Shown one piece after another: positions 12,172 through 40,790 of a DNA stretch of 59,158 bases. Position 1 is the first letter of the stretch, and every line of letters starts with the position of its first letter. The translations under genes and the position numbers were made by a program. The stretch covers positions 1 to 59,158 of the forward strand of contig VBKF01000158.1 of the NCBI GenBank assembly GCA_005888095.1, given 5' to 3'. Origin of the DNA: Deltaproteobacteria bacterium (GTDB lineage Bacteria; Desulfobacterota; Binatia; DP-6). The notes beneath the pieces are model-generated. The model ran no database searches, was not told where the DNA came from, and worked only from the letters and a program-made list of their open reading frames with translations.

Positions 12172-12312
12172 GGTTGGGAGCAACGTGAGCAACGCTCGTG
12201 CCGCCGCCGGCATGGGGGTGCCGGCGGACGAGAAGCGCCGTCGCGACGGGCACTTGCGGTGATGTCGCGAGGCGGCGCACGAGGCGCGGGGCGCCCGCGA
12301 CATTTCGCGGAT

Positions 12313-14232
<1,920 letters not shown>

Positions 14233-14352
14233 GCTGACTGCTCCGCGTCGAATACCACCTCGCGGGTGACCTCGTCGAGAGTGTCGAACGGGACGCGGTC
14301 CAGACGCCAAAAGGTGACCGTGCGCCCGCTCGTACCCAGGTGGGGGTAGCAA

Positions 14353-14381
14353 TTGACCGGTAAGACCTGAGAAGTAATACT
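14353..14381 (+). promoter_or_regulatory. Sigma-70-like promoter of vapBC with probable leaderless start
   Basis: TTGACC at 14353-14358 resembles a -35 element. AATACT at 14376-14381 (17-bp spacing), or TAATAC one base earlier, resembles a -10 element. The expected transcription start falls about seven bases further on, at or next to the vapB ATG at 14389. No purine-rich ribosome-binding site precedes that ATG (the sequence is TGGCGCCC), which is consistent with a leaderless mRNA. Confidence 0.5.
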
Positions 14382-14388
14382 GGCGCCC

Positions 14389-14631
14389 ATGAAGACCAGC
14401 ACCATGACGGTGAAGGGGCAGGTGACGGTTCCCAAGGAGCTGAGAGACGCGTTCGGCTGGAAGGTCGGAGACGAGGTGGCCTTCTTGCGCGAGAAGGACG
14501 GCGTCAAGATCGTGCGTGCCGAGCGGCAGCGGCGGGGGCGCGCCATCGTCGAACGGCTCAAGGGCGCTTCGTGGAACCGCAAGCTCACGACCGATCGGCT
14601 CATGGCCATGACGCGCGGCGAAGAACGGTGA
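14389..14631 (+). CDS. vapB: AbrB-fold antitoxin, VapB-type
   Basis: 80 residues. The N-terminal SpoVT/AbrB swapped-hairpin domain is clear: MTVKGQVTVPKELRDAFGWKVGDEVAF, with VKIVRAERQ closing the domain. The C-terminal 35 residues would wrap the toxin. It neutralises the PIN-domain toxin encoded next and probably represses the shared promoter as a complex. The toxin's GTG overlaps this gene's TGA (GTGA). Confidence 0.92.
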   Translation: MKTSTMTVKGQVTVPKELRDAFGWKVGDEVAFLREKDGVKIVRAERQRRGRAIVERLKGASWNRKLTTDRLMAMTRGEER

Positions 14632-15029
14632 TCCTAGTCGACACGAATGTCTTCGTCGATCTCTGGACCCGGGACCCTGTTTGGGGGGTCTGGTCGGAGA
14701 AGGCGCTCGCACGCGCGGCCGAGCGTGGCCCGCTCGCAGTGAACCCCATCATCTATGCAGAGCTCTGCCTCGGGTTCGAACGAGAGTCGCTGCTCGAGGA
14801 GGCCCTTGCCGACGCCGGCATACGGCGGCTGGCGCTGCCGTACCGCGCCGCCTGGCCGGCGGCCCGCGCCTTCACGGCCTACCGCAAGCGCGGCGGCAAG
14901 CGGACCGCGCCGCTCCCGGACTTCTTCATCGGGGCCCACGTCTTGGTCGAGGGCCTGACGCTCCTCACCCGCGGCGCCCGGCGATATCGGACCTACTTTC
15001 CCCGTCTCCGCCTGATCGCGCCGACTTGA
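14628..15029 (+). CDS. vapC: PIN-domain ribonuclease toxin, VapC-type
   Basis: 133 residues from a GTG that overlaps the antitoxin stop. The PIN acidic residues are present: Asp5 in VDTNVFVDL, Glu in IIYAELCLGFE, and Asp in PLPDFFIGAHVLVEG. The last segment TLLTRGARRYRTYFPRLRLIAP is typical of VapC. The family cleaves RNA in a magnesium-dependent way. Length is normal and no damage is seen, so the pair is likely functional. Confidence 0.93.
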   Translation: MILVDTNVFVDLWTRDPVWGVWSEKALARAAERGPLAVNPIIYAELCLGFERESLLEEALADAGIRRLALPYRAAWPAARAFTAYRKRGGKRTAPLPDFFIGAHVLVEGLTLLTRGARRYRTYFPRLRLIAPT

Positions 15030-15118
15030 GAGCGTGGCCTTCCTTCCCTGAAACGATAGACCGCCTTCCGGCATCCAATGGGCAGGACGGGGTCGGTCCA
15101 CCCGTCGACGCACTACCG

Positions 15119-16465
15119 ATGCGCGCCTTCGCCCATGCCCCCACGGAGCCTCGCAGGGTCCTCATCCTCGGAGGGGGATTCGGCGGGATCTACGCTGCCC
15201 TCGAGCTCGAGAAGGTCCTGGCTCGCCATGGGAATGGGACGCTCGACGTCACGCTCGTCACCCGTGACAACTTCTTCCTGTTCACTCCGATGCTGCACGA
15301 GGTGGCGGCAAGCGACCTCGAGCTGAACACGATCGTGAATCCGCTCCGCAAGCTGCTCCGGCGGGTCAACACCTTCGTGGGCGGCATCGAGGCCATCGAC
15401 CTCGAGGCCCGCCGCGTGACCGTCTCGCACGGGCTCGACGCCCACACCCACGAGCTGCCCTACGATCACCTCGTGCTGGCGCTCGGCTCGAGCACCAACT
15501 TCTACGGGCTCCCCGGTGTCGAAGAGTGCGCGCTCACGATCAAGTCGCTGGGCGACGCGGTGGCGCTGCGCAACCGGTTGATCGGCCACCTCGAGGAGGC
15601 CAGCTCCGAGTGCGCCGCCGGGGAGCGGCAGCCGCTGCTCACCTTCGTGGTCGCGGGGGGCGGCTTCGCCGGCGTCGAGACGCTCGGCGGCATCAACGAC
15701 TTCATGCGCGAGGCGCTGCGCTTCTACCCGAACCTGCGCGAGGACCACCTGCGGATGGTCCTGGTCACGCCCGACCCGATCATCCTGCCCGAGCTCGGTC
15801 CGCAGCTCGGCGCCTACGCGCAGCGGAAGCTCGCGGCCCGCGGCGTCGAGATCATCACGGGCATGAAGGTCCGCGGCATCCGGGACGGGGTCGTGGAGCT
15901 CACCGACGGCCGCACCATCCGCGCCAGCACGCTGGTGTGGACGGCGGGCACGGCGCCGAACCCTCTGATTGCCGGCCTGCCGCTGCCCAAACGGGGCGGG
16001 CGCGTGCTCGTCGACGAGTACCTCGCGGTGCCGGGCTGCCTGGGCGTGTGGGCGCTCGGCGACTGTGCCCTCGTGCCCGACAGTCGCGGCGGCTTCCAGC
16101 CGCCCACCGCCCAGCACGCCCTCCGCGAAGGCCGGACGGCCGCGCGCAACGTGGCAGCGGCGATCCTGGGGCGGCCGAAGAAGCCTTTTCGCTTCCGGAC
16201 GCTCGGCCAGCTCGCCGCGATCGGCCGGCGCACGGGCGTCGCGAACGTCTTCGGGATCAGGTTCTCGGGATTCGTCGCCTGGTGGCTCTGGCGGACGATC
16301 TACCTGAGCAAGCTCCCGCGTCTCGAGAAGAAGGTGCGCGTCGCCCTCGACTGGACCCTCGATCTCTGCTTCGCGAAGGACTTCGCTTGCCTGACGGACG
16401 GCGAGGCGGCGCGCCAGCGTGCCCCCGTGCCGGCCGCGCTGCGGGGGGCGGGCGTCGCCTCATGA
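15119..16465 (+). CDS. Type II NADH dehydrogenase (NDH-2), FAD-dependent
   Basis: 448 residues. There are two Rossmann motifs, VLILGGGFGGIYAALELE near the N-terminus for FAD and FVVAGGGFAGVETLG mid-protein for NADH. WTAGTAPNPLI and VWALGDCALVPD complete the FAD site. The amphipathic C-terminal region (FVAWWLWRTIYLSKLPRLEKKVRVALDW) anchors such enzymes to the inner membrane. It transfers electrons from NADH to quinone without pumping protons. It opens a 12-gene, same-strand run and overlaps the next small zinc-binding gene by ATGA. Confidence 0.93.
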   Translation: MRAFAHAPTEPRRVLILGGGFGGIYAALELEKVLARHGNGTLDVTLVTRDNFFLFTPMLHEVAASDLELNTIVNPLRKLLRRVNTFVGGIEAIDLEARRVTVSHGLDAHTHELPYDHLVLALGSSTNFYGLPGVEECALTIKSLGDAVALRNRLIGHLEEASSECAAGERQPLLTFVVAGGGFAGVETLGGINDFMREALRFYPNLREDHLRMVLVTPDPIILPELGPQLGAYAQRKLAARGVEIITGMKVRGIRDGVVELTDGRTIRASTLVWTAGTAPNPLIAGLPLPKRGGRVLVDEYLAVPGCLGVWALGDCALVPDSRGGFQPPTAQHALREGRTAARNVAAAILGRPKKPFRFRTLGQLAAIGRRTGVANVFGIRFSGFVAWWLWRTIYLSKLPRLEKKVRVALDWTLDLCFAKDFACLTDGEAARQRAPVPAALRGAGVAS

Positions 16466-16665
16466 CCTGCCGCGAGGTCATTGATCTCGTGGCCGATTAT
16501 CTCGCGAACGACCTCTGCCCCCGGGCGCGACACCGCTTCGAGGCTCACTTCGCTGCATGCCCCGACTGCGTGACGTACGTTCGCGGCTATGCAGATGCGA
16601 TCCGGCTGGCGCGCGCGGCCTACGCCGAGCCCGACGATCGCGTCGCCGTAACCGCGGCGTCCTGA
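16462..16665 (+). CDS. Small soluble zf-HC2 (ZAS-type) protein, orphan anti-sigma-like
   Basis: 67 residues. It has the zinc-binding anti-sigma pattern: Cys3, then RFEAHFAACPDC with the H-x3-C-x2-C triad. There is no transmembrane segment and no sigma gene next to it. It starts inside the NDH-2 stop (ATGA). A second gene of the same type lies at 24754-24999 near the end of the same run, and the two share the layout FEAHxxxCPDCVxYxRxY. It may bind a distant sigma factor or simply be a zinc or redox sensor. Confidence 0.8.
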   Translation: MTCREVIDLVADYLANDLCPRARHRFEAHFAACPDCVTYVRGYADAIRLARAAYAEPDDRVAVTAAS

Positions 16666-16694
16666 GGACCATCGAAGGCGCAGGAGGGCTTTCG

Positions 16695-16856
16695 ATGATC
16701 GTCGCACTCGAGATCGTGGCAGGACTCGTACTCACCGCTGCGCTGGTGACGGGGACGCTCGTGCTCACAGCGTTCGAGCTCGGCCGGCTGGCCGCCATGG
16801 ACGACGACCAGCGCGACGTGGAGGTCGAGACGACCGCCCTCAAGCGCGCGGCCTGA
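16695..16856 (+). CDS. Small single-pass membrane protein (53 aa), unknown
   Basis: AGGAGGG eight bases before the ATG is one of the best ribosome-binding sites in the window. The protein is one long hydrophobic helix (ALEIVAGLVLTAALVTGTLVLTAF) followed by a polar, acidic C-terminus (MDDDQRDVEVET). It sits between the zf-HC2 gene and a YceI-like gene in the long operon, so it may be an anchor or partner for a neighbouring membrane protein. No family is recognised. Confidence 0.65.
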   Translation: MIVALEIVAGLVLTAALVTGTLVLTAFELGRLAAMDDDQRDVEVETTALKRAA

Positions 16857-16862
16857 ATTCCC

Positions 16863-17567
16863 ATGCGTCTACGCGCAGCCGGGCTTTCCGCGGTCCTCAC
16901 CCTCGTCTGCTCCTCGGCCACGCTGGCGGACACGAAGTTCGCCGTGGATCCCGAGGCCGGGAACAACACGTTCACCGCGGTCTTCGATGCCGCCGTCGGC
17001 GAGCGCATCACGGCGGTCAGCTCGGCCGTCGGCTGCACCTTGACGGTGGACGAGACGACGCTCGAGGGGAAGGCCTCGTGCTCCGTCCCCCTGGCCTCCA
17101 TCCGGGTCGACAACGACGAGACCAAGAGCGACCACTTCCGGCAGTGGGCCACCAACAAGCAGGTGGACCCGAAGCGGTGCGTCTTCAAGCTCGACCTCCC
17201 AGCGGTCAAGCTGCAGGGACCGGTCGAACCCATGAAGCCCGTCGCCTTCGAGACCGAGGGCTCGTTCACCCTCTGTGGCCGCAAGCGTGACGACCAGGGC
17301 GTGGAGAGGATCCAGGGCACCGTCCTCTACCTTCCCGCCAAGGAGTACGATGCCGCCGAGACGCCCCGCACGCCGGCCCGACCGCACGACGTTCCGCGGA
17401 CGATCCGCATCCGCGCCAGGATCGAGGGCTTCGACCGCGAGCGGTACCGGGTCGGTCCCAGGTGGACCGCCGGCTGGCTCGCGCGGGTGCAACAGCTCGC
17501 CCCTGTCGTCGCCACCGAGGGCACGATCGAGGTGAACCTGTTCGCGATGGAGGCGGGCGGGAAATGA
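16863..17567 (+). CDS. Secreted YceI-like protein
   Basis: 234 residues with a signal peptide (LSAVLTLVCSSATLADT). The mature protein follows the YceI pattern of an extended lipocalin-like barrel: KFAVDPEAGNNTFTAVFD, ITAVSSAVGCTLTVDETTLEGKASCSVPLASI, DNDETKSDHFRQW. YceI proteins bind isoprenoid or amphiphilic molecules. Compared with YceI it has extra C-terminal residues (about 180-234). The stop overlaps the aquaporin start (ATGA). Confidence 0.75.
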   Translation: MRLRAAGLSAVLTLVCSSATLADTKFAVDPEAGNNTFTAVFDAAVGERITAVSSAVGCTLTVDETTLEGKASCSVPLASIRVDNDETKSDHFRQWATNKQVDPKRCVFKLDLPAVKLQGPVEPMKPVAFETEGSFTLCGRKRDDQGVERIQGTVLYLPAKEYDAAETPRTPARPHDVPRTIRIRARIEGFDRERYRVGPRWTAGWLARVQQLAPVVATEGTIEVNLFAMEAGGK

Positions 17568-18355
17568 CGGCGTCCGCCCGCCACTGGCCGGAGTTCGCGA
17601 TGGAAGCCGCGTGCCTCGGCCTCTTCATGATCGCCGCGTGCGTCTTCGTCACCCTCCTGGAGCATCCGATGTCTCCGCTCCACCGCGCGATCCCGAGCGC
17701 CACGCTCCGCCGCGTGCTCGCCGGGATCGCCATGGGCCTCACCGCCGTCGGCCTCATCTACTCGCCGTGGGGGCAACGGTCGGGCGCCCACATGAACCCG
17801 TCGCTCACGCTCACCTACCTCCGCCTGCGGAAGATCGCCGCGCCCGACGCCCTCTGCTACGTGCTGGCCCAGTTCGCCGGCGGACTCTCGGGGGTGCTGG
17901 TGGCCCGGACGCTCCTCGGCGGCGCGGTCGCGGATCCGGCGGTGCAGTATGCGGTCACGGTTCCCGGTCCGGGCGGCCGGGGCGCGGCCTTCGCGGGCGA
18001 GCTCGTCATCTCCTTCGGCATGATGCTGACGGTGCTCGTCGTATCGAACTCGCGGCTGGCGCGCTTCACCGGCCTGTTCGCCGGCATCCTGGTCGCCACC
18101 TACATCGGCGTCGAGGCGCCGCTCTCGGGCATGAGCATGAACCCGGCGCGCACGCTCGGCTCGGCGTTCCATGCCGGGCAGTGGACGGCGCTCTGGGTCT
18201 ACTTCACCGCGCCGCCGCTCGGCATGCTGGCGGCCGCCGAGCTCTACCGTCGCCTGCCGGGCGCCCCGCAGATATTCTGCGCCAAGCTGCACCACGACAA
18301 CGACAAGCGGTGTATCTTCCGCTGTCAGTATCCAAGGAATCGGAGGACCTCATGA
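17564..18355 (+). CDS. MIP-family aquaporin with Cys/His-rich C-terminal tail
   Basis: 263 residues, six hydrophobic helices plus two half-helices. The first pore motif is HMNPSLTLTYLRL (NPS, not the classical NPA). The second is SGMSMNPARTLGSAF (canonical NPA plus Arg). Members conduct water or small neutral solutes. After the last helix the tail reads FCAKLHHDNDKRCIFRCQYPR, with three Cys and two His, suggesting a metal site or redox control on the cytoplasmic side. It starts inside the YceI stop and its own stop overlaps the DoxX start. Confidence 0.88.
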   Translation: MTASARHWPEFAMEAACLGLFMIAACVFVTLLEHPMSPLHRAIPSATLRRVLAGIAMGLTAVGLIYSPWGQRSGAHMNPSLTLTYLRLRKIAAPDALCYVLAQFAGGLSGVLVARTLLGGAVADPAVQYAVTVPGPGGRGAAFAGELVISFGMMLTVLVVSNSRLARFTGLFAGILVATYIGVEAPLSGMSMNPARTLGSAFHAGQWTALWVYFTAPPLGMLAAAELYRRLPGAPQIFCAKLHHDNDKRCIFRCQYPRNRRTS

Positions 18356-18855
18356 ACCGCATCTTCACGTTGATCACGGCCGTGAGCCGGCTCGCCGAGC
18401 GCGTCGGGACCTCGCTCGAGTGGCTGTCGCCGGCCGTCGCCCGGCTGACGGTGGGACTGGTGTTCTTCCAGTCCGGCTGGGGCAAGCTCCACGACCTGGA
18501 GAAGGTCACCAACTACTTCACCGAGCTCGGGATCGCCGCCCCGGCGTTCCAGGCGCGCCTCGCCTCGACGGCGGAGTTCGTGTGCGGCGGCCTGCTGCTC
18601 CTCGGCTTCGCCACCCGCTTCGCCGTCGTGCCGCTGATCGTCACCATGTGCGTCGCGATCCGCACCGCCCTCTGGGGGCAGGTCGACGGCCTCGGGAGCC
18701 TGGTGGGACTCACGGAGTTCGCCTACATCGCGCTGCTCGTCTGGCTCGGGACGCACGGCGCCGGCCCGCTCTCGCTCGACTGGCTCGTCGCGCGCAGCGC
18801 CGGGCGGTTCGGGATGGGCGCGCTCCCCGCCACGGCGTCGCGCACGATCTCCTGA
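18352..18855 (+). CDS. DoxX-family membrane protein
   Basis: 167 residues with four hydrophobic helices: ARLTVGLVFFQSGWGKLHDLEKV is the DoxX signature, followed by TAEFVCGGLLLLGFATRFAVVPLIVTMCVAI and FAYIALLVWLG. DoxX-like proteins are linked to thiosulfate/quinone redox or oxidative stress, but most have no proven role. GGAGG precedes the ATG, which overlaps the aquaporin stop. Placement in a redox-rich operon with NDH-2 and a GMC oxidoreductase supports an envelope redox function. Confidence 0.88.
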   Translation: MNRIFTLITAVSRLAERVGTSLEWLSPAVARLTVGLVFFQSGWGKLHDLEKVTNYFTELGIAAPAFQARLASTAEFVCGGLLLLGFATRFAVVPLIVTMCVAIRTALWGQVDGLGSLVGLTEFAYIALLVWLGTHGAGPLSLDWLVARSAGRFGMGALPATASRTIS

Positions 18856-18865
18856 CGGGAGGCGC

Positions 18866-20413
18866 ATGTCGGACAACCACTACGACGTCATCATCATCGG
18901 CACGGGCGCGGGCGGCGGGACGCTCGCCTATCGCCTCGCGCCGTCCGGCAAGCGCATCCTGCTCCTCGAGCGGGGCGATTACGTCCCGCGCGAGAAGGAG
19001 AACTGGGACTCGCACGCGGTCGTCGCCGAGAGCCGCTACCACATCAAGGAGGCCTGGCGCGACAAGGACGGCCGCGAGTTCCACGCCGGCGCCCACTACA
19101 ACGTCGGCGGGAACACGAAGTTCTACGGCGCGGCACTCCTCCGGATGCGGAAGGAGGACTTCGGCCAGGTCCGCCATCACGGCGGCATCTCCCCCGCCTG
19201 GCCGATCGGCTACGACGACCTCGAGCCGTACTACACCGAGGCGGAGCAGCTCTACCAGGTGCACGGCCTCCGGGGGAGCGATCCGACCGAGCCGCCGGCG
19301 AGCGCGCCATACCTCCACCCCCCGATCAGCCACGAGCCGCGCATCCAGGCGATCTTCGATGGCTTCACCCGCCAGGGATACCGGCCGTTCCCGATTCCGA
19401 TCGGCCTCATGCTCGACGAGCAGAACCCGGGGCGAAGCCGCTGCATCCGGTGCGACACCTGCGACGGCTTCCCGTGTCTCGTCCAGGCGAAGGCCGACAC
19501 ACAGGTGATCTGCGTCGACCCGGCGCTCGAGCACCCGAACGTCACCCTGGTGACGAACGCCTTCGTCAGCCGCCTCGAGACGAGCCCGTCGGGCCGCGAG
19601 GTCACCACGGTGCACGTCGAGCGGAACGGCGTCCCGGAGACGTATTCCGCAAACGTCGTCGTCGTCTCGTGCGGCGCCATCAACTCGGCGGCCTTGCTGC
19701 TCCGCTCGGCGAACGACCAGCACCCGCGCGGCCTCGCCAACGGATCCGATGTGGTCGGCCGGCACTACATGTGCCACCTGAACACGATGTTCCTCGCGAT
19801 GTCCCGGCATCCCAACCCCACCCGGCTCAACAAGACGCTCGGCCTGAACGACTTCTACTTCCCGACCGAGGAGTGGGAATATCCGATGGGCCACATCTCG
19901 CTGATGGGCGGCATCGACGGCAACGTGCTCCGGGCCGGGGCGCCGCGGCTCGTGCCCGGCATGACGCTTGAGGTGATGGCGAAGCACGCCGTGCCGTTCT
20001 GGATGACGTCGGAAGATCTTCCGGATCCCCGGAACCGCGTGACCGTCGACCGCGACGGCGGGATCCGGCTGACGTACTCCTCGAACAACGACGAGGCGCA
20101 CCGGCGACTGGCGGCGAAGCTCAAGAGCCTGCTCAAGCACATCGAGTGCGAGGAGCATCACCTGATCCCGCTCCAGGCCTACGTGCCGGGTCGCATCCCG
20201 CTCGCCGGCGTCGCGCACCAGAACGGCACCGTCCGCTTCGGCACGGACCCCAGGGCGTCGGCGCTCGACGTGAGCTGCAAGGCGCACGACGTCGACAACC
20301 TCTACGTCGTCGACGCGAGCTTCTTCCCCTCGAGCAGCGCGGTGAACCCCGCGCTCACCATCATGGCGAACGCGCTCCGGGTGGGCGATCACCTGCGGGA
20401 GCGGCTCGGCTGA
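18866..20413 (+). CDS. GMC-family FAD oxidoreductase
   Basis: 515 residues. The ADP-binding motif is DVIIIGTGAGGGTLAYRLA, followed by LLLERGDYVPRE. AHYNVGGNTKFYGAALLRMR binds FAD. A compact Cys cluster CIRCDTCDGFPC occurs mid-protein, as in several bacterial GMC relatives. The C-terminal GMC domain is VVDASFFPSSSAVNPALTIMANALR, but the usual catalytic His is replaced or shifted (SSSAVNP). The substrate is probably an alcohol or sugar; a glucosidase is encoded two genes after the next gene. GGAGG is five bases before the ATG. Confidence 0.92.
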   Translation: MSDNHYDVIIIGTGAGGGTLAYRLAPSGKRILLLERGDYVPREKENWDSHAVVAESRYHIKEAWRDKDGREFHAGAHYNVGGNTKFYGAALLRMRKEDFGQVRHHGGISPAWPIGYDDLEPYYTEAEQLYQVHGLRGSDPTEPPASAPYLHPPISHEPRIQAIFDGFTRQGYRPFPIPIGLMLDEQNPGRSRCIRCDTCDGFPCLVQAKADTQVICVDPALEHPNVTLVTNAFVSRLETSPSGREVTTVHVERNGVPETYSANVVVVSCGAINSAALLLRSANDQHPRGLANGSDVVGRHYMCHLNTMFLAMSRHPNPTRLNKTLGLNDFYFPTEEWEYPMGHISLMGGIDGNVLRAGAPRLVPGMTLEVMAKHAVPFWMTSEDLPDPRNRVTVDRDGGIRLTYSSNNDEAHRRLAAKLKSLLKHIECEEHHLIPLQAYVPGRIPLAGVAHQNGTVRFGTDPRASALDVSCKAHDVDNLYVVDASFFPSSSAVNPALTIMANALRVGDHLRERLG

Positions 20414-32225: not shown

Positions 32226-32527
32226 ATCCACGCGCTATCTGAGGCGTGCTCACCACGCTTCCTCATCAGCCCCGCATCACCGCGGACGCCGCGCTACGTC
32301 TGGTCCGGCGGAGCCTCCGCCGCTTCAAGCTCGTCTCGCCCGGCGCGCGTGACTACTCGGCGACGGTACGCACGCTGGCCGAGGCGCGGCTCGTTGGAGG
32401 CATCATCTACGACGCGCTGGTGGCGCGCGTGGCAGCCAAGAGCCGAGCGCAGGAGATACTCACCTTGAACCGGCGTGACTTCGATCGCCTCGGACCGCTC
32501 TTCGGCGTCAAGGTGAGGGCTCCCTGA
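32226..32527 (+). pseudogene. Frameshifted, N-terminally truncated PIN-domain remnant
   Basis: One frame reads IHALSEA, the start of the PIN region around the second acidic residue. The next frame continues VLTTLPHQPRITADAALRLVRRSL and ends with VGGIIYDALVARVAAKSRAQEILTLNRRDFDRLG, which matches the family C-terminus including the third acidic position (YDAL). The expected YA/YS between the pieces is lost, and the first 50-60 residues with the DxN motif are not found upstream. The toxin is therefore dead. No antitoxin gene is seen beside it. Confidence 0.7.
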
Positions 32528-32541
32528 GCCGGCATACCGGC

Positions 32542-33312
32542 TCACCCGACCCGCGCGATGATCCCGTCCTCCACCCAGCGCGCGAGCAGCGACGTCACCT
32601 CTTCCGCCGCCTCGCCCGGCGGGCGGTCGGCGAAGGCCTCGCAGACGACGACGAACGGCGCGCCCGCCGTCAGCCGGCGGAGCGCCTCCGCCGCGCACGC
32701 ATCCATGGCGGCGTGAAACACTGCGTAGCCAGCCCCACGCCAGACCCGGATGGCAGTGGGCGCCGCAGTCAGGCCGGCCGGATCGGTGCCGGCCCACAGC
32801 TCATGCACCGGCCACGAGGTGCGGACGACCTGGAGTGCGGGAATGGGAACCAGATAGAGGTGGGGCCAGTCCTCGGGGCGGACGGTTCGCAGGGCGGCTA
32901 CCGGCAGCGGCTCGGCGTCCGGGGCGTCGAACACGTCGATCCGGGCCCATTCGAGGCGGGCCAGGTCGGCGAGGTAGGGCGGCAGATCGGTCCGCCGCTC
33001 GAGGAATGCCGCCATGGCCCGGCTCAGGTGGCGAAGCGACGGATGCTCGGACGGATGGCTTCTCAGGTAGTCGCGTGCGATCTGCTCGAATCCGTCGCGG
33101 CCGAGGAGCGCCGCGAGGCGCGGAAAGTCCTCGTGCAGCACGTCGAGGAGTCGTGAGGAGTAGGCGCCGGCATAGACCTGGACGCGTGCGCTCGAGTCGA
33201 GGGTCGAGCTGGGCAGGACGGCTTCGACGAGCTCCGGCGCGATGGTATCCCACTCGTCGGCCAGGGAACGCCAGAAGAGCTGCTGGAGCTCACGCAGGCT
33301 GGCGACAAGCAC
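32542..33312 (-). CDS. bufC: DUF2063 (BufC/HvfC-type) partner protein of the MNIO enzyme
   Basis: 256 residues. The N-terminal domain shows the family pattern: LRELQQLFWRSL, ARVQVYAGAYSSRLLDVLHEDFPRLAALLG, FEQIARDYLRSHPSEHPSLRHLS. The C-terminal half is less conserved. DUF2063 proteins act with DUF692 enzymes, probably presenting the precursor peptide. I chose the GTG at 33312 because GGAGG lies six bases upstream; this makes a 23-bp overlap with bufB. A longer ATG start at 33342 would add a very basic segment. Confidence 0.88.
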   Translation of the reverse strand: MLVASLRELQQLFWRSLADEWDTIAPELVEAVLPSSTLDSSARVQVYAGAYSSRLLDVLHEDFPRLAALLGRDGFEQIARDYLRSHPSEHPSLRHLSRAMAAFLERRTDLPPYLADLARLEWARIDVFDAPDAEPLPVAALRTVRPEDWPHLYLVPIPALQVVRTSWPVHELWAGTDPAGLTAAPTAIRVWRGAGYAVFHAAMDACAAEALRRLTAGAPFVVVCEAFADRPPGEAAEEVTSLLARWVEDGIIARVG

Positions 33313-34132
33313 CCAGCGCCTCCGCCTCGACCGTACGGGCATGTTCCGCCTCGGCGACCAGCTCCTCGAAGGCGGGGATGTGGTCGTCCCACTCCACGAG
33401 CGTCGAGACCGGACCGAAGCGTCGCACGGCGTCGCGGTAGAGGGTCCACACGGGCGACGGCACGGGGTGATCGTGCGTGTCCACCAGGTGCGTACCCGCG
33501 TCGCTGTGGCCCGCGAGGTGAATCTGGCCGATGCGTTCCGGAGGCAGACCCGCGAGGTAGTCGTCCGGCGAGAAGCCGTGGTTCACGGCGCTCACGTAGA
33601 TGTTGTTCACGTCGAGCAGGATGCCGCAGTCGGCAGCCTCCGCGACGCCGCCGAGAAAGGTCCATTCCGGCATGGTCGAGTGTCTGAAGGTGACGTAGCT
33701 CGAGACGTTCTCGACCAGGATGCGCCGGCCGAGCCGTTCCTGCACGTGACGGATCCGATCCGCGACGTGCGCGAGCGTCTCCTCGGTGTACGGCAGCGGG
33801 AGCAGGTCGTGGGCGTAGTGGCGTCCGAAGGCCCCCCAGCACAGGTGCTCGGAGACCCACGCCGGCTCGAAGCGGCGGATCAGCCGCTCGAGCTCACCCA
33901 GGTGGCGCTCGTTCAGCGGGTCGGTGCCGCCGAGGTTCATCGACACCCCGTGGAGCACGACGGGCGCCAGCGCGCGCGCCTTCTCGAGCACGTGGAGCGG
34001 CCGCCCTCCCGGGATCATGAAGTTCTCCGAGATCACCTCGAACCAGTCGACGCGCGCGGTGCCGTCGACGACGCGCGGATAGTGCGGTGGGCGGAGCCCG
34101 ATACCGTGGCCGAGGTGGGAGAAGAGCGCCAT
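33290..34132 (-). CDS. bufB: DUF692 / MNIO family peptide-modifying oxidase (BufB-type)
   Basis: 280 residues in a TIM-barrel. The conserved stretches with likely iron ligands are GHGIGLRPPH (His9), VSEHLCW (Glu95, His96), ENVSSY (Glu141, Asn142), DVNNIYVSAVNHGF (Asp174, His185), IHLAGHSDAG (His205, His209), DTHDHPV (Asp218, His220) and EWDD (Glu247). Multinuclear non-haem iron oxidases of this family modify Cys or other residues in ribosomal peptides. Bufferin enzymes make thiooxazole-type heterocycles from Cys. It lies between a Cys-rich precursor gene and the DUF2063 gene. Confidence 0.92.
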   Translation of the reverse strand: MALFSHLGHGIGLRPPHYPRVVDGTARVDWFEVISENFMIPGGRPLHVLEKARALAPVVLHGVSMNLGGTDPLNERHLGELERLIRRFEPAWVSEHLCWGAFGRHYAHDLLPLPYTEETLAHVADRIRHVQERLGRRILVENVSSYVTFRHSTMPEWTFLGGVAEAADCGILLDVNNIYVSAVNHGFSPDDYLAGLPPERIGQIHLAGHSDAGTHLVDTHDHPVPSPVWTLYRDAVRRFGPVSTLVEWDDHIPAFEELVAEAEHARTVEAEALGACRQPA

Positions 34133-34143
34133 GCCGATGGTGA

Positions 34144-34169
34144 GGGCCCCGAGCTCGGGCCCGGGGCCC
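34144..34169. promoter_or_regulatory. GC-rich hairpin between precursor gene and bufB
   Basis: GGGCCCCG (34144-34151) and CGGGGCCC (34162-34169) form an 8-bp all-GC stem with a 10-base loop. It lies in the 45-bp gap between the bufA stop and the bufB start. Many RiPP operons have such a stem that lets the precursor be made in excess over the enzymes by attenuation or mRNA stabilisation. No U-run follows, so a stabiliser or partial attenuator is more likely than a full terminator. Confidence 0.55.
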
Positions 34170-34177
34170 CGCCCAAC

Positions 34178-34444
34178 TTACTGCTTCTTGGCCTCGGGGG
34201 CGACGGTTCCGCCCTTTGTCTTGCAGTCGGCCGCGCTCGCCTTGACGATCCCCTGGCCCTTGCACGCGTTCTTGCCCTTGCACTCGTTGTGCGCGCTGGC
34301 GCAGGAGCCCTGCCCCTTGCAGGCGTTGATCCCGGCGCACCGGACCTCGTCGGCGCCCGCCTTCTGTTCCGCCCGGGCCGTGACGGCACCCGATAGAAAC
34401 AGGGCCGCGGCCGCGCTGGCGATGAGGATGCTCTTGCCGTTCAT
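34178..34444 (-). CDS. bufA: Secreted Cys-rich RiPP precursor, bufferin-type (BufA2-like)
   Basis: 88 residues. A Sec signal peptide covers about residues 1-25 (ILIASAAAALFLSGAVTARA). The mature part has six Cys (36, 42, 48, 55, 61, 74) and repeats the motif NACKGQG twice (INACKGQGSC and KNACKGQGIV), ending in DCKTKGG. This arrangement is that of the small secreted Cys-rich precursors next to DUF692/DUF2063 genes (bufferins), which chelate copper after heterocycle formation. GGAGGAG lies four bases before the ATG, inside the end of the mscS-like gene, and the two genes overlap by one base (TGATG). Confidence 0.88.
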   Translation of the reverse strand: MNGKSILIASAAAALFLSGAVTARAEQKAGADEVRCAGINACKGQGSCASAHNECKGKNACKGQGIVKASAADCKTKGGTVAPEAKKQ

Positions 34445-35484
34445 CAGTCTCCTCCCTCCGCTGGGTTTGTGCGGCTTAGACGCCGGGCCTGGGAAAAGGT
34501 TTCACCGGCGCCGCCATCTGCGGAGATCACGGTCCGGATGGGGTAGGGGATCTCGAGCCCGGCGCGCTGCGCGGCGTGCCAGATACGGGTCCGGACCTCC
34601 TCGTCGATGACGGTGTCGTGCTCGAAATCCGCGATCCAGTACCGCAGGCCGTAGACGATCGCACTCTCGCCGAAGTCGTGCGGACCGCAGTCGGGCGGCG
34701 GCTGTTCCAGCACCCCCGGGACGTCCCGCACGGCGGCCACCAGCACGCCCCTCACCTGGCCCGGTGGATGGCGATAGTCGAAGCCGATCCGCACCGTCAT
34801 GCGATGCGCTCCCGTCGGCCGCGAGAAGTTGAGCACCTCGCCCGCGACGAGCTCGCTGTTCGGCACGAAGACGGTGTCCCCGTCCTTGGTGACGATGCGC
34901 GTGGACCGCCAGCCGATCTCGAGGATCCGACCGACCCGGCTGCCGACCTCGATCCACTCGCCGCGGCCGAGCGTGCGGTCGAGCTGCAGACCGAGCCCGC
35001 CGAAGACGTTGGCGATGGTCGACTGGAGCGCGAGCCCGATGACTGCCGTCAGCACCGCCGAGGTCGTGACGAGCGAGAAGAGGTCGAGGCCCGCGAGGCG
35101 GAGAAAGCCCATGACGAGAGCGACCGCCACCGACACCAGCAGGAGGTCACGCAGGATCGACGGCACATCCACCCCGACGCGTGCCAGCACGAGGTCGAAG
35201 ACCACGAGCCCGGCGATCGCGACCAGCCCGATGCCGAGCGTGAGGACGCTGAGCACCTGCACCAGAGTACCCAGAGACGCACCGGCCATGCCGCCGAGGA
35301 GAATCGCGCTGGCCGACAGCACGACGGACACGCCGAGGAACAGCACCGCGCCTCCGCCGCGATGACGGCGTCCGCGTGGGAGGAGCCGCCGCAGGATGGG
35401 CATTGCCAGCAGGGCGAGCGCCGCCACACCCAGGACCACCCACCCGGGGCCGGCATCCTGCAAGCGGTCCGAGATGGTCGTCAC
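34444..35484 (-). CDS. MscS-family mechanosensitive channel
   Basis: 346 residues. Four hydrophobic helices are followed by the pore helix region SAVLTAVIGLALQSTIANVFGGLGLQLDRTLGRGEWIEVG, the diagnostic MscS signature. The beta domain follows (GRILEIGWRSTRIVTKDGDTVFVPNSELVAGEVLNFS), then the C-terminal vestibule domain. It opens under membrane tension and releases osmolytes; some relatives pass metal ions. Its TGA overlaps the bufA ATG by one base, so both are translated from the same message. It starts 30 bp after the GT-C gene. Confidence 0.92.
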   Translation of the reverse strand: MTTISDRLQDAGPGWVVLGVAALALLAMPILRRLLPRGRRHRGGGAVLFLGVSVVLSASAILLGGMAGASLGTLVQVLSVLTLGIGLVAIAGLVVFDLVLARVGVDVPSILRDLLLVSVAVALVMGFLRLAGLDLFSLVTTSAVLTAVIGLALQSTIANVFGGLGLQLDRTLGRGEWIEVGSRVGRILEIGWRSTRIVTKDGDTVFVPNSELVAGEVLNFSRPTGAHRMTVRIGFDYRHPPGQVRGVLVAAVRDVPGVLEQPPPDCGPHDFGESAIVYGLRYWIADFEHDTVIDEEVRTRIWHAAQRAGLEIPYPIRTVISADGGAGETFSQARRLSRTNPAEGGD

Positions 35485-35514
35485 TGGGTTCAGATGCCGC
35501 GGTTTCGGTCTCGG

Positions 35515-37422
35515 TTACGGCGCTTCCCGGCTGCGGATGAGGGCATAGAACCCGAGCTGACCCTCCGCCGGGCAGGTGTGGATCGTGAGCCGGTGGCGCC
35601 CAGGGTCGAGGGCGAGCGTGACGATGACCCCCCGGCCGAGGACCCCCGCTCGGGGCGACAGGATCGCGGCCGCGAGCCGGTCGTCGACGAACACCTGGGC
35701 GGTGCCGTAGGGCGAGACCTCGAGCGCGAGGGTGGTGGGCCGATCCACCTCCTCGAGGCGCGCGAAGGCGACGCAGGCCGCCGCCTCGCCGAGGCGCCGC
35801 CCGTCGACGTATCCCTCCAGCGCGCGCTCCCGCCCGGCGCCGCGCGGGTAGCTCGGTAGACCGGGGTCGGCGACGAGCTCGAGCGGCGGCGGCAGCGGTG
35901 CACCGCCCGGCAGGACCTTCCAGTCGAGAAGGAAGTCCTGGTTGTGATCCTCGAGGAAGCGGTAGAGGTACGTGATGCCATCGTGCAGGGGCACCGCGCG
36001 CGGGTCGGCGGCGAGTCGCGCCCGCGCGAACGGATACTGCCCGTCGTCGGCGTAGTAGTCGCTGTCGAAGCGGGTAGCGGCGACCAGCGGGATGTCGGCC
36101 ACGCGACCCTCGAACAGGTCGAGGTACAGGCGGTAGGTCGCCGGGTCCTTCGCCGCGATGAAGATCGGGTCGAGGACGTCGAGGTACGCGGCGTGGGGTG
36201 CCCAGAAGACGAACGCCTCCGTGGCGGCCCAGGGCGCCGCCACCCGGGCGCCCTCGGGCAACGCCCGCGCGAAGGCCTCCCAGTCCGCACGCATGTCCGG
36301 GCGCCAGCTCCTGAGCACTGCCTGCATGCGGCCGAGCCCATAGGCGGACAGCGGGACGGCGGAGATAAGGCAGAGCACGAACGCCGGCGCGAAGGGCACG
36401 CGTCCTCGCCACGGGAGCCGCGCATACCGCCCGGGCGCCTCACCGGCCGCCTGCATCGCGCGAAGGAGGGCGAGCGTGGCGAGCGGGACGAGGTACGTGA
36501 TGAAGCGGTACACGAGCACGTAGAGGAGAGCGAAGGCCGCCGTGGCGAGGAGCGTGAAGTCCCGCAGCCGTCGATCCTCGCTCGGTGGAGCGACCGGCAC
36601 CCGGCTTCGCCAGAGGACGAGGAGGCCCGCCCACCAGCCGAGGTTCAGGACGAGCGTGTCGCGCGTGGTCCGCGACGCGTTCTCCGGGCTCGGGAGCGTC
36701 TCGTTCCCCAGGTAGAAGCTCAGGTTCTGCACCACCCAGACCCGCACGTTGGCCGGGAAATGCGGATGGAGGAGAAGTCCGAGCGCGACGCCGATCGCCG
36801 GGTAGAGGATCATGCGCCAGTCTGCCCGCTGCTCGACCCAGACGTCGTAGATGAAGAAGAGAACACAGAGTCCGAGGAACGCCTCGAACGCGGTGTAGGT
36901 GAGCGTGTACAGCCAGGCGACGACGCCGAGCCATACGGTCCGCCGGCGGCTCGCGAGCGGGATGGCGATCAGGATGAGCAGGAGCGAGAGGGTCTCGGGC
37001 CGCAGCCGGATCATGCGCAGCATGAAGTCGGCCGAGGCGCCGAAGACGAGGAGCGGGATGGCGATGCCCCAGCGTCCGATGGCGGCAACGGCGCCGTGGG
37101 CCAGCGCGGCCGCGACCAGCGCGCCGAGGAGTGCGAGGGCGATGAACCCGCCCGTGGTCGGGTCGGAGAGGACGGCGAACGGGACGAGCAGCACGTGGAA
37201 CAGGAGCTCCTTGTCGCCGAAGCCGTCGTACATGATGCTGAGGCGGGCCCACTCGAGGCGATGGAACAGACCCCGCTCGGCGTAGGCCCGCGCCACCGCC
37301 AGGTGGTAGTAGGAATCGCCGTCCGGCAGCACCGGCAGGCGCACGTAGAGCAGGCACAGAACGAGCGCAGAGGCCGCGAAGACCAGCCCGACGCTTGCCC
37401 AGAGTGTGGAGCGTGACGCCAC
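35515..37422 (-). CDS. GT-C-type polytopic membrane glycosyltransferase-like protein
   Basis: 635 residues with ten or more helices in the first 400. A DGDSYYHLAVARAYAERG motif (Asp34, Asp36, His40) sits just after the first helix, where GT-C enzymes such as STT3/PMT carry their acidic catalytic motif. A second charged loop YDGFGDKELLFHVLL resembles the STT3 second motif. The C-terminal 220 residues are soluble, rich in beta (TIHTCPAEGQLGF). It would transfer a sugar from a lipid carrier outside the membrane; acceptor unknown. It is the first gene of the minus-strand run leading to mscS and the buf genes. Confidence 0.75.
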   Translation of the reverse strand: MASRSTLWASVGLVFAASALVLCLLYVRLPVLPDGDSYYHLAVARAYAERGLFHRLEWARLSIMYDGFGDKELLFHVLLVPFAVLSDPTTGGFIALALLGALVAAALAHGAVAAIGRWGIAIPLLVFGASADFMLRMIRLRPETLSLLLILIAIPLASRRRTVWLGVVAWLYTLTYTAFEAFLGLCVLFFIYDVWVEQRADWRMILYPAIGVALGLLLHPHFPANVRVWVVQNLSFYLGNETLPSPENASRTTRDTLVLNLGWWAGLLVLWRSRVPVAPPSEDRRLRDFTLLATAAFALLYVLVYRFITYLVPLATLALLRAMQAAGEAPGRYARLPWRGRVPFAPAFVLCLISAVPLSAYGLGRMQAVLRSWRPDMRADWEAFARALPEGARVAAPWAATEAFVFWAPHAAYLDVLDPIFIAAKDPATYRLYLDLFEGRVADIPLVAATRFDSDYYADDGQYPFARARLAADPRAVPLHDGITYLYRFLEDHNQDFLLDWKVLPGGAPLPPPLELVADPGLPSYPRGAGRERALEGYVDGRRLGEAAACVAFARLEEVDRPTTLALEVSPYGTAQVFVDDRLAAAILSPRAGVLGRGVIVTLALDPGRHRLTIHTCPAEGQLGFYALIRSREAP

Positions 37423-37529
37423 GGGGGTGACTCTCCTACCGATTCGGCGGCCGTGACGGAAGGGCGAGCGGCCGGCGACGGCTGCCTGCCGCTTGACGCG
37501 AGCCTCGGGCGCGCCGTAGACGCCGCAGG

Positions 37530-39149
37530 GTGCCCACGGGCGGTGCGCGACGGAAGCGCGGCCTCGTCCTCGTCGTCCTCCTCGCCGCGACGCTCGCCTA
37601 CCTCCTCTACCCGCTCTCCAGCGCCCGCTTCCGCATCGTCGTCGACGAGGTGAAGCTGCGCGCCCGCGAGCGTTACCTGGCCGAGGCGCCCCGCATCGAC
37701 CCGTCCCGCGCCAGGCGAAACGTCGTCCTCATCCTGGCCGACGACCTCGGCAAGACCGACATCACGCGCTACGACGGCTGGGTGCCGACGCCCCGGATCG
37801 ACGCGATCGGGCGCGAAGGGGCAACCTGCGCGGAGGGCTACATCACCTCGCCGATCTGCAGCCCCTCGCGCGCGGGCCTCATGACCGGCCGCTACCAGCA
37901 GCGCTTCGGCCACGAGCTCCAGCCGCACGACCGCTACCCGCGGAACCGCCTCGAGTACTACCTCTTCAAGTACCTCCTCGCGCGCGGCGATTTCCGGGTG
38001 GCCGATCTCATCGCCTTCCCGCGCTTCGAGGACATCCTCGAGCAGGGCCTGCCCATTTCCGAGGTGACGCTCGCCGAGGTCCTGCGCCGTCAGGGCTACC
38101 GGACCGCCATCATCGGGAAGTGGCATCTCGGCAGCTACGGCGGTCACATCCCGATCCGTCGCGGCTTCGACTACCACTACGGGTTCTACGAGGCGCACAC
38201 GCTCTACGCCGACCCCGCCGATCCCGACATCGTGAACCGGCGGCACGACGACTTCACGGACCGCCACATCTGGAGCCAGGGGCGCCGCGGCAACTGCGCC
38301 CTCCGCCGCAACGACGACGTCGTCGACGAGAAGATGTACCTGACCGAGAAGATCGCCGACGAGAGCGTGCGCTGGCTCGAGGCCAACGCGACGGGGCCCT
38401 TCTTCCTCTACGTCCCTTTCAACGCCCCGCACACGCCGTTCCAGGTCCCGCGCCGCTACTACGAACGCTTTGCGCAGATCACCGACCCGAACCGGCGCAT
38501 CTACGCCGCGATGATCGCCGCCCTCGACGACGCCGTCGGCCGCATCATGGACGCCCTTGCCCGCCTCGGGCTCGACGACAACACGCTCGTCTTCTTCCTG
38601 AGCGACAACGGCGGCGCGACGTACACGGGGGCGACCGACAACGCGCCGCTGCGGGGCGGCAAGTTCACGAACTTCGAGGGCGGGATCAACGTGCCGTTCC
38701 TCGTGCGCTGGCGGGGCACGATCCCGGCGGGCGCGTCGTGCACGCACCCGGCGAGCGCCCTCGACGTGTTCGCGACGGCCGTGGACGCGGCCGGCGCCGA
38801 GCTGCCGTCGGACCGGCCCTACGACGGCGTCTCGCTCCTGCCCTACCTGACCGGCCGCACCACGGCCGCGCCCCACGAGGCGCTCTTCTGGCGTGCCGAG
38901 TACCACAAGGCCATCCGCAAGGGCGACTGGAAGCTCGTGAAGGACGAGATGAGCGGCCGCACCGTGCTCTACGATCTCGCGACGGACAAGGGAGAGCGCC
39001 GGAACCTGGCACCGGCGCAGCCCGAGGTGGTGCGCGAGCTCGAGCAGGCCCTCACGCGCTGGGAGAACGAGATGGTGAGCCCGCTCTGGCCGCGCGTCAT
39101 GGACTTCCGCTTCGTCGACGGGGAGGAAGTTTACTTCTTCCCGCTGTGA
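37530..39149 (+). CDS. Membrane-anchored sulfatase (formylglycine-type)
   Basis: 539 residues from a GTG at 37530. A single N-terminal helix (GLVLVVLLAATLAYLLYPL) anchors or exports it. The sulfatase signature is intact: ADDLGKTDITRYDG with the metal Asp pair (71-72), then ICSPSRAGLMTGRY, in which Cys110 is the residue converted to formylglycine. GKWHLG and LSDNGGATYTGATDNAPLRGGK with further metal and sulfate ligands follow. It hydrolyses sulfate esters in the periplasm. The formylglycine-generating enzyme is not in the window. Confidence 0.93.
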   Translation: MPTGGARRKRGLVLVVLLAATLAYLLYPLSSARFRIVVDEVKLRARERYLAEAPRIDPSRARRNVVLILADDLGKTDITRYDGWVPTPRIDAIGREGATCAEGYITSPICSPSRAGLMTGRYQQRFGHELQPHDRYPRNRLEYYLFKYLLARGDFRVADLIAFPRFEDILEQGLPISEVTLAEVLRRQGYRTAIIGKWHLGSYGGHIPIRRGFDYHYGFYEAHTLYADPADPDIVNRRHDDFTDRHIWSQGRRGNCALRRNDDVVDEKMYLTEKIADESVRWLEANATGPFFLYVPFNAPHTPFQVPRRYYERFAQITDPNRRIYAAMIAALDDAVGRIMDALARLGLDDNTLVFFLSDNGGATYTGATDNAPLRGGKFTNFEGGINVPFLVRWRGTIPAGASCTHPASALDVFATAVDAAGAELPSDRPYDGVSLLPYLTGRTTAAPHEALFWRAEYHKAIRKGDWKLVKDEMSGRTVLYDLATDKGERRNLAPAQPEVVRELEQALTRWENEMVSPLWPRVMDFRFVDGEEVYFFPL

Positions 39150-39152
39150 AGC

Positions 39153-39542
39153 TCAGTGATCGTGCCCTTTCGGACGCGCCGCGAGTGCGTGCGCTCGAGC
39201 GTCGACGGCGGCCGTCAGGCAGAGACCCTTGTGGGCGAGCAGATCCTCGAACGCGCGGAGCCAGCACCCGTAGTAGCTCCACTCTTCCTCGCGACGCTCC
39301 CACACGGCGATCTCGCTGATCAGCCGCTGCCGGAACTCCTCCCACTCGAACGCGCCCGCCTCGTGGAGCGCCATCGTGAGGCCGAAGACACGGCTCTCCC
39401 ACACCTCGGCGAAGGCGAGCTCGCCGTTTCTCCGCGGCGGCGCCGTAGGGCCACTCTGGTCGAGCGTCGCACGCCGTCGCGGCGTGGCGCCCTCGTCCGC
39501 CGTCGCCGCCGGCGTGCGGAGGCTCAGCCCGTCAGCTGTCAC
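39153..39542 (-). CDS. Nitrile hydratase accessory protein
   Basis: 129 residues from a GTG at 39542, overlapping the alpha-subunit stop by 11 bp. The domain [36 protein letters not shown] and [21 protein letters not shown] resembles the N-terminal half of the beta subunit and matches accessory proteins that help deliver cobalt to the alpha subunit. The first 40 residues are Pro/Ala-rich and unassigned. It is the third gene of the beta-alpha-accessory operon. Confidence 0.85.
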
Positions 39543-40134
39543 CGCCCACCTCGGGTGGCCGACCCGCCCTCGCGACGCCGATCATCGCGTCGCGCGTGAC
39601 CAGCGCCGCGAGGTCATCCTGGCTCATGGCGTCGGTGCCGGCGGGTCGCTCGGGCAGTACCATGTACCGCATCTCGGCACTCGAGTCCCACACACGGACC
39701 TCGACGTCCGCCGGCAGCACGAGACCCATCTCGGCGAGCACCGCGCGCGGCTCCCGCACCATGCGCGCACGATAGGCGGGGCTCTTGTACCAGGAGGGCG
39801 GGAGACCGAGCAGGCCCGATGGATAGCAGGAGCACAGCGTGCAGACGACGACGTTGTGCACCGCCGGGCCGTTCTCGACGACCACCAGGGGCGCATCCGG
39901 GATCGCCGTCACGCCGAGCTCGGCGATCGCCGCCCAGGGGTCGGCGAGGAGGCGCGCGCGATAGCCGGGATCGCTCCACGCGCGGGCCACCGCCTTCGCA
40001 CCGTTCATCGGCCCGATGTCCTGCTCGAAGCGGCGGATGATCGCGTCGACGACCTCCGATCGCACGAGTCCCTTCTCGACGAGCAGCGACTCCAGCGCCT
40101 CGGCGCGGAGCGCGTTGGCGTCCCGTTCCGTCAT
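39532..40134 (-). CDS. nthA: Nitrile hydratase alpha subunit (cobalt-type)
   Basis: 200 residues. The metal site is [10 protein letters not shown] with Cys98, Cys101, Ser102 and Cys103. Thr between the first Cys and Leu (CTLCSC) is the cobalt signature; iron enzymes have Ser. [15 protein letters not shown] and [21 protein letters not shown] are conserved family stretches. It hydrates nitriles to amides. The ATG overlaps the beta-subunit stop by ATGA. No amidase gene is seen nearby. Confidence 0.95.
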
Positions 40135-40790
40135 GGCTCGCCTCCGACCGGCGTCAGGTATGCCTCGAAGAGGTCGAGGTGCACCGCGCTCCCGGACTCG
40201 GCGTCGGGGCCCCACAGCTCGAGGGCACTGAAGCGCACGCCGTACACGTACTGCGGATGCTCGCCGAGGCCGTGGGCATGTGTGTCGGGAAAGACACAGG
40301 CGGGGTGCACTCGATGCACGACACCTCGCTTGCCGCGCACATATCGCGGTAGTCGCGTGTGCCCCGGCGGATGAATGTTACGCGCGAGGACCCGGTCTCC
40401 CACCGTGAAGCGCGGCGGTGCCTCGATCGGGCGGAGGACACCAGTGAACGCGCCGTGGCGCGGCGCAGTCGACGGCGCAGCTCGGGCGCGCGCCGGCGCG
40501 GCTGCGAGACGCGCCTCGAGCTCCCCCGGTTCGAGCAGGCCCGCCTCGACGAGAATGGTCTCGAGCGCGCGGAGCCACCGCCCGTAGTATCCGACGCCGA
40601 GGTAGGTGGCCGGCTCGAGGCGCTCGATCGCGTGGCGGAAGGCATCGATGTTGCTCCATCCCGTCCCCACCACCTGGAAGACCATCCCGAGCACCCGGCT
40701 CTCCCACGGCGCGTGGAAGAGGGGCTCGTTCACCTCGACGGGCACGGGGCCGAACCCGTGCATCCCGCCCATGTCGTGAATGCCGTCCAC
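40131..40790 (-). CDS. nthB: Nitrile hydratase beta subunit
   Basis: 219 residues starting [16 protein letters not shown], the family hallmark. The middle helical part [36 protein letters not shown] and the C-terminal SH3-like barrel ([31 protein letters not shown]) are intact. It forms the heterodimer with the alpha subunit. The gene order beta-alpha-accessory is the one usual for cobalt enzymes. Its start is 80 bp from the divergent thiolase-like gene. Confidence 0.95.

What the first reader, a model, noticed from the sequence alone, without database searches (positions are those of the whole stretch)
32542..35484. Bufferin-type RiPP locus translationally coupled to an MscS channel gene
Cys-rich precursor (6 Cys, NACKGQG twice), DUF692/MNIO enzyme and DUF2063 partner form the buf trio. 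The mscS-like stop and the precursor start share one base (TGATG) and the precursor's ribosome-binding site lies inside mscS. A tension-gated channel fixed to a metallophore peptide operon would link metal stress to osmotic or envelope stress. I know the trio as a family; the channel coupling is the unusual part.
Basis: partly seen in the sequence, partly recalled or inferred. Interest (0 to 1): 0.72.

Follow-up and report, generated by a model that had tools for sequence, protein, structure and literature searches.

The report
Bufferin operon behind a channel gene
An uncultured bacterium carries a copper-binding-peptide (bufferin) gene set whose first gene overlaps the end of an ion-channel gene; the gene set is of a known kind, and the overlap with the channel is real but was found only in a few close relatives.

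Summary
On the minus strand an MscS-family channel gene (34444-35484) ends in TGATG, sharing one base with the start of a six-Cys BufA2 precursor (34178-34444); BufB/MNIO and DUF2063 genes follow. Overlap and ribosome-binding site recur in one same-genus genome; mscS is under purifying selection (dN/dS 0.21).

The trio is an ordinary bufferin-2 locus. The channel is not a fixed partner: mscS adjoins bufA in 3 of 7 family genomes (3 of 10 BufA2 loci), once without bufB/bufC nearby; 1 of the 80 best MscS loci of one scan lies by buf genes; 0 of 73 BufA2 loci from searches centred outside the class has MscS within 1.5 kb.

Two facts point the other way. Inside the class MscS lies within 3 kb at 6 of 106 BufA2 loci (0.34 expected), with three channel architectures. 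[quoted passage not shown] A lineage-limited functional pair is not excluded.

Side findings: hairpins between bufA and bufB; sigma-factor genes divergent from bufA2 in many genomes of the class.

The parts
34444..35484 (-). mscS-family channel gene, 346 aa, GTG start
   Evidence: MS_channel_2nd 55.2 bits (cut-off 20.2), MS_channel_3rd 31 (21); AlphaFold2 model pLDDT 87.0 with MscS/YnaI as best PDB matches
34450..34459 (-). Shine-Dalgarno-like GGAGGGAGGA of bufA inside the 3' end of mscS
   Evidence: sequence; GGAGGAGACTGATG identical in G004
34178..34444 (-). bufA: BufA2 precursor, 88 aa, six Cys, two NACKGQG, hydrophobic N-terminus ending in ARA
   Evidence: NF050166 86.9 bits (cut-off 60); six Cys invariant in 9 of 9
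34143..34170 (-). 12-bp G+C-rich hairpin in the 45-bp bufA-bufB gap, no T run
   Evidence: -32.4 kcal/mol, z -4.1 for the gap alone; z -0.87 when flanking coding sequence is included
33290..34132 (-). bufB: MNIO (formerly DUF692) maturase, 280 aa
   Evidence: NF050167 376 bits (310); only PF05114 match in the own genome
32542..33342 (-). bufC: DUF2063 partner protein, up to 266 aa, start uncertain, overlaps bufB
   Evidence: PF09836 64.9 bits (27.2); NF050145 HvfC 82 bits, below its cut-off of 142
35515..37422 (-). 635-aa gene 30 bp upstream of mscS, possible first gene of the unit (inference); no Pfam family over its cut-off

Best explanation
An ordinary bufferin-2 locus that in one bacterial family lies directly behind an mscS-family gene, so that bufA can be read from the mscS transcript. 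Shown from sequence: the overlap, the internal ribosome-binding site, the family assignments, the hairpin after bufA, and the same arrangement in one same-genus genome. Inferred: bufA is translated from its own strong ribosome-binding site, helped by ribosomes that end mscS; the hairpin keeps precursor mRNA above enzyme mRNA; BufB with BufC turns Cys into thiooxazoles; Sec exports the peptide, which binds copper in the periplasm. As the only MNIO found in the genome, BufB would also have to serve the second, stand-alone bufA2 on contig C91. The channel is a co-expressed neighbour kept by descent, at most a source of promoter and shared stress control, not part of the peptide's chemistry.
For: Family scores over cut-off for BufA2, BufB, DUF2063, MscS. 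Overlap and ribosome-binding site conserved in G004 with low dN/dS. The channel is dispensable for buf loci: 3 of 10 BufA2 loci in the family have it, 100 of 106 in the class lack it within 3 kb, 73 of 73 from other searches lack it within 1.5 kb. The buf genes are dispensable for this channel type: 79 of the 80 best MscS loci show no Buf gene, nor do the stretches read around homologues in G018, G021, G001, G144. Second bufA2 without MscS or BufB in the stretch read; one MNIO in the genome.
Against: MscS is over-represented near BufA2 inside the class, with different channel types. The overlap survives at dS about 0.4-0.5 between two species. mscS stays with bufA in G005 although bufB/bufC are not there, which is more than a bufABC promoter story needs. 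A paper cites copper influx through mechanosensitive channels.
Confidence: 0.6

Rival explanations
1. A lineage-limited functional pair: the channel lets copper (or another solute) cross the inner membrane or relieves envelope stress, while the exported peptide captures copper on the periplasmic side; shared transcription and coupled translation set the ratio of the two.
For: 6 of 106 BufA2 loci in the class have MscS within 3 kb against 0.336 expected (P 1.5e-6 if independent; 4e-4 for four separate events). Three architectures: plain or cNMP-related small MscS in the window family, another MscS in G142 C153 (82 bp upstream, same strand), MscS-DEP divergent in G142 C290 and G101. Both MscS genes found in G142 lie by bufA2 genes. 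[quoted passage not shown] the cited paper is not held).
Against: Excluding the discovery family leaves three events (P 0.005) or, if the MscS-DEP cases are one, two (P 0.045). No MscS at 73 of 73 loci from other groups. 3 of 9 genomes with an MscS-DEP homologue at the threshold used have it within 5 kb of bufA2.
Confidence: 0.27
2. The channel no longer works as a plain tension valve: it descends from, or is close to, MscS proteins with a C-terminal cyclic-nucleotide-binding domain and may be gated or regulated otherwise. (Compatible with either reading above.)
For: The G001 homologue carries PF00027 at 83.5 bits (cut-off 27.5); the G005 homologue has an aligned C-terminal extension without a Pfam match; the window protein ends before it. 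That such proteins can be ligand-gated is recalled, only the listing was seen.
Against: Pore helix, beta domain and C-terminal domain are MscS-like; homologues in G018 and G021 lack the domain too, so its absence need not change gating.
Confidence: 0.2
3. Pure coincidence of neighbours with no expression link: bufA has its own promoter inside mscS and the overlap is the common compact junction of tandem genes.
For: One-base stop-start overlaps are common in bacteria (recalled). bufA has its own strong ribosome-binding site.
Against: No sigma-70-type promoter was found in 32400-37650 (other promoter types not covered). The junction is conserved in G004.
Confidence: 0.13

Closest known systems
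Bufferin 2 (Buf2 / BufA2, earlier Buf_6/12Cys) clusters, PMC12452194
   Same: Six-Cys precursor with a hydrophobic N-terminus, BufB-type MNIO, DUF2063 partner, order A-B-C; stand-alone precursors are also reported there
   Different: An mscS gene overlaps the precursor start; [quoted passage not shown]
Captophorins / oxazolin / fontiphorin (other MNIO-DUF2063 peptides), PMC13097082
   Same: MNIO plus DUF2063-type partner; copper-binding thiooxazoles expected by kinship
   Different: Other precursor families; the product here has not been examined
MscS / YnaI mechanosensitive channels
   Same: Pfam beta and C-terminal domains; predicted fold matches MscS and YnaI entries
   Different: Five long helices before the beta domain in the model; about 22-25% identity to the solved channels in the Foldseek list; gene coupled to bufA

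Membership tests
Bufferin 2 cluster | BufA2-type precursor with six conserved Cys | tested here: met
   NF050166 86.9 bits, cut-off 60; six Cys invariant in 9 of 9
Bufferin 2 cluster | Sec signal peptide on the precursor | tested here: inconclusive
   Read by eye: charged start, hydrophobic stretch, ARA; no signal-peptide predictor was run
Bufferin 2 cluster | BufB-type MNIO enzyme | tested here: met
   NF050167 376.3 bits, cut-off 310
[quoted passage not shown]
   DUF2063 64.9 bits over 27.2; C-terminal NGO1945_C 20.2 bits under 27; HvfC model 82 bits under 142
Bufferin 2 cluster | Thiooxazoles on Cys, copper binding in the periplasm | not testable with these tools
   Needs expression and mass spectrometry
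MscS superfamily | Beta-domain and C-terminal domain | tested here: met
   PF00924 55.2 over 20.2, PF21082 31 over 21
MscS superfamily | Heptameric tension-gated channel | not testable with these tools
   Monomer model only
Cyclic-nucleotide-gated MscS-like channels | C-terminal cNMP-binding domain | tested here: not met
   Absent from the window protein; present in the G001 homologue
   3 of 7 family genomes; 1 of 80 MscS loci; 0 of 73 BufA2 loci; 6 of 106 loci within 3 kb in the class, which is above chance
   No expression data

The most novel reading that the evidence does not exclude
In this bacterial class MscS-type channels have been joined to bufferin-2 genes several times, by different channel types, because channel-borne copper flux across the inner membrane and periplasmic copper capture act as one response, with coupled translation setting the ratio of channel to copper-binding peptide.
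Probability: 0.2. Interest if true: 0.65.

Novelty: new variant of a known kind. Interest (0 to 1): 0.36.

Why it matters
If the link is functional, it ties periplasmic copper buffering to a membrane channel, gives bufferins a partner outside their reported core genes, and meets a recent proposal that mechanosensitive channels carry copper. As it stands it documents a rare operon form of a widespread copper-binding peptide family, with the precursor's start embedded in a channel gene, and names the genomes in which the question can be settled.

Tried and rejected
Sigma-70-type promoter scan of 32400-37650: 0 found; 2 terminator-like sites against 1.1 expected. Foldseek and PDB searches gave plain MscS-family matches and a plain MNIO match. 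Literature: I saw no paper that describes an mscS-bufferin neighbourhood; these are listings (capped) plus term searches within papers, not full reading. Opened by term search only: PMC12914433, PMC5852495 (unrelated mentions), PMC10875860 (an MscS gene co-localises with XoxF3 lanthanide genes there, unrelated to bufferins). The PNAS 2024 bufferin paper PMC11626156 and the copper-influx paper PMC12198049 are not held and were not read. Rejected: chance overlap of spurious frames (both genes conserved, low dN/dS in G004). Rejected as a general rule: fixed channel coupling.

Limits of the counts. One search listed 117 rows; the 108 over the cut-off were read (106 stretches) and 9 below it were not fetched. 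Many stretches are cut short by contig ends; the span actually read is used. The 73 loci are 15, 30 and 28 new ones, not all listed rows; four of the 15 are below the cut-off, three of those four overlap on one contig (G167:C185), and G161:C85 has the same coordinates and score as G079:C85 of the class, so it is probably a repeat. Kinship is not told for those genomes; 'outside the class' rests on the centres chosen. The scan kept the best 80 of 119 relatives and may leave out the window's own genome. The P values treat loci as independent; the number of separate events is my reading of family and channel type, not a tree. Hairpins: a first, cruder run with flanking coding sequence gave 24 of 78 with z below -2 and z -0.87 for the window; the run on the gaps alone gave 36 of 72 and -4.1.

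Full report
What is there. On the minus strand, in transcript order: a 635-aa gene (35515-37422; no Pfam family over its cut-off), 30 bp, an mscS-family gene (34444-35484, GTG start), bufA (34178-34444), 45 bp, bufB (33290-34132) and bufC (32542-33342; start uncertain). The mscS stop and the bufA start share the A of TGATG, and the bufA Shine-Dalgarno sequence lies in the last codons of mscS. Families: BufA2 86.9 bits (cut-off 60), BufB 376 (310); MbnB_TglH_ChrH 361 (25), DUF2063 64.9 (27.2), MS_channel_2nd 55.2 (20.2). The HvfC partner model stays below its cut-off (82 of 142).

Is it real? In G004 (same genus) the same four genes stand in the same order and GGAGGAGACTGATG is identical. A record of equal contig length and MscS identity, VBKG01000159.1 (L178), is titled Deltaproteobacteria bacterium isolate DP_3. 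Pairwise dN/dS, window against G004: mscS 0.21, bufA 0.12, bufB 0.14, bufC 0.35. In G005, another genus of the family, mscS is followed after 59 bp by a bufA2, but no bufB or bufC is found in the 14 kb read; a complete bufABC lies on another contig of G005. The own genome holds a second bufA2 on C91 with no MscS or BufB in the 18.8 kb read, two MscS genes and one PF05114 enzyme, so one enzyme would have to serve both precursors.

Is the channel a fixed partner? No. Family: 10 BufA2 loci in 7 genomes, 3 with mscS; two of the genomes are only 80-82% complete. Reverse test: an alignment of seven MscS homologues found 119 relatives in genome contigs, of which the best 80 were returned; the Buf models hit 1 of the 80, the G004-type locus. 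Homologues in G018, G021, G001 and G144 show no Buf gene in the 5-16 kb read. Searches centred on other groups: 73 BufA2 loci read at +-1.5 kb, MscS in 0, BufB in 63, BufC in 58.

Evidence the other way. In the class, 87 of 148 genomes have a BufA2 match. I read 106 stretches with 108 BufA2 copies from 84 genomes. MscS lies within 3 kb at 6 of the 106: window, G004, G005, G142 C153 (another MscS type, same strand, 82 bp upstream), and G142 C290 and G101 C137 (divergent, MscS with a C-terminal DEP domain); a seventh, in G143, is about 4.5 kb away. MscS density is 0.532 per Mb (203 in 381.9 Mb, 84 genomes), so 0.336 are expected in the 631 kb read: P 1.5e-6 if all are independent, 4e-4 for four separate events, 0.005 for three without the discovery family, 0.045 for two. 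Homologues of the G142 C290 channel occur in 9 of 148 genomes at the threshold used, and 3 of these 9 lie within 5 kb of a bufA2 (one search compared). Above chance, but patchy.

A published basis for a copper link. [quoted passage not shown] The cited paper is not held, so I have only its title. If right, a channel that admits copper and a periplasmic peptide that captures it would make sense as neighbours. This raises the functional reading, which I still hold less likely than descent and co-expression, because buf loci and this channel type mostly occur apart.

The channel. Seven homologues share the pore region; the G001 homologue carries a cyclic-nucleotide-binding domain (83.5 bits), G005 a C-terminal extension without a Pfam match, the window none. 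AlphaFold2 on 40 sequences gives pLDDT 87.0, pTM 0.63 and five long helices followed by the beta and C-terminal domains. Foldseek's best matches are YnaI-MscS chimeras, MscS, MscK and YnaI. Family membership is secure; tension gating is not shown.

How it most likely works. BufB and BufC modify the six-Cys precursor in the cytoplasm; Sec exports it; it binds copper in the periplasm. These steps are literature for the family (PMC12452194: abstract, sections 4 and 14 read; PMC13097082 and PMC12538549: passages) and were not tested here. A strong hairpin stands between bufA and bufB in the window. On the gaps alone, 36 of 72 in the class and 35 of 55 from the other searches have z below -2, the window -4.1; with flanking coding sequence the signal is weaker, 24 of 78 and -0.87. 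In G022 the stem is followed by a T run, as in a terminator. I infer that it keeps precursor above enzyme expression.

Regulation in relatives. A sigma-factor-like gene lies within 4 kb of bufA2 at 28 of 106 loci in 27 genomes, 25 of 28 divergent and upstream, 23 of 28 at 245-434 bp between matched stretches. The seed protein has Sigma70_r2 and Sigma70_r4_2 over their cut-offs; the seed of the accompanying gene found at 23 loci has only a sub-threshold zf-HC2 match (20.8 of 22.2), so 'anti-sigma' is tentative. [quoted passage not shown]

Verdict. Observation confirmed; known family; unusual, lineage-limited neighbour with a modest statistical signal and a possible copper rationale. The class is probably Binatia (recalled, from no call).

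Noticed in passing
28 of 106 BufA2 loci of the class, e.g. L087, L091, L092, L097, L108: Sigma-70-family genes (ECF-like), mostly divergent and 245-434 bp upstream of bufA2, often followed by a tentative anti-sigma gene; a published survey reports sigma genes for Buf1 but not Buf2 clusters.
   Followed up: partly
34143-34170, and bufA-bufB gaps of many BufA2 loci (e.g. L021, L082, L138, L273): Strong hairpins between the precursor and enzyme genes, with different sequences; in L082 followed by a T run like a terminator.
   Followed up: partly
L013 9300-9572 (G000 contig C91): A second, stand-alone bufA2 in the window's genome, which has a single MNIO enzyme.
   Followed up: partly
L152, L153, L167: MscS channels with a C-terminal DEP domain (80-85 bits), two of them divergent from a bufA2 gene, the third about 4.5 kb away.
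   Followed up: partly
L018 4199-5991: mscS and a lone bufA2 side by side without bufB/bufC; the channel has a C-terminal extension that aligns with a cyclic-nucleotide-binding domain of the G001 homologue.
   Followed up: partly
window 10170-20410: Cluster with an MFS transporter, a sigma-70-family gene, a sigma-54 activator, an NDH2-like oxidoreductase, a MIP channel and a GMC oxidoreductase; similar-looking genes stand near bufA2 in L152 and L153, by eye.
   Followed up: no
39532-40215 (-): Nitrile hydratase alpha-chain gene (277 bits) with a weak match to a Frankia-type peptide model.
   Followed up: no
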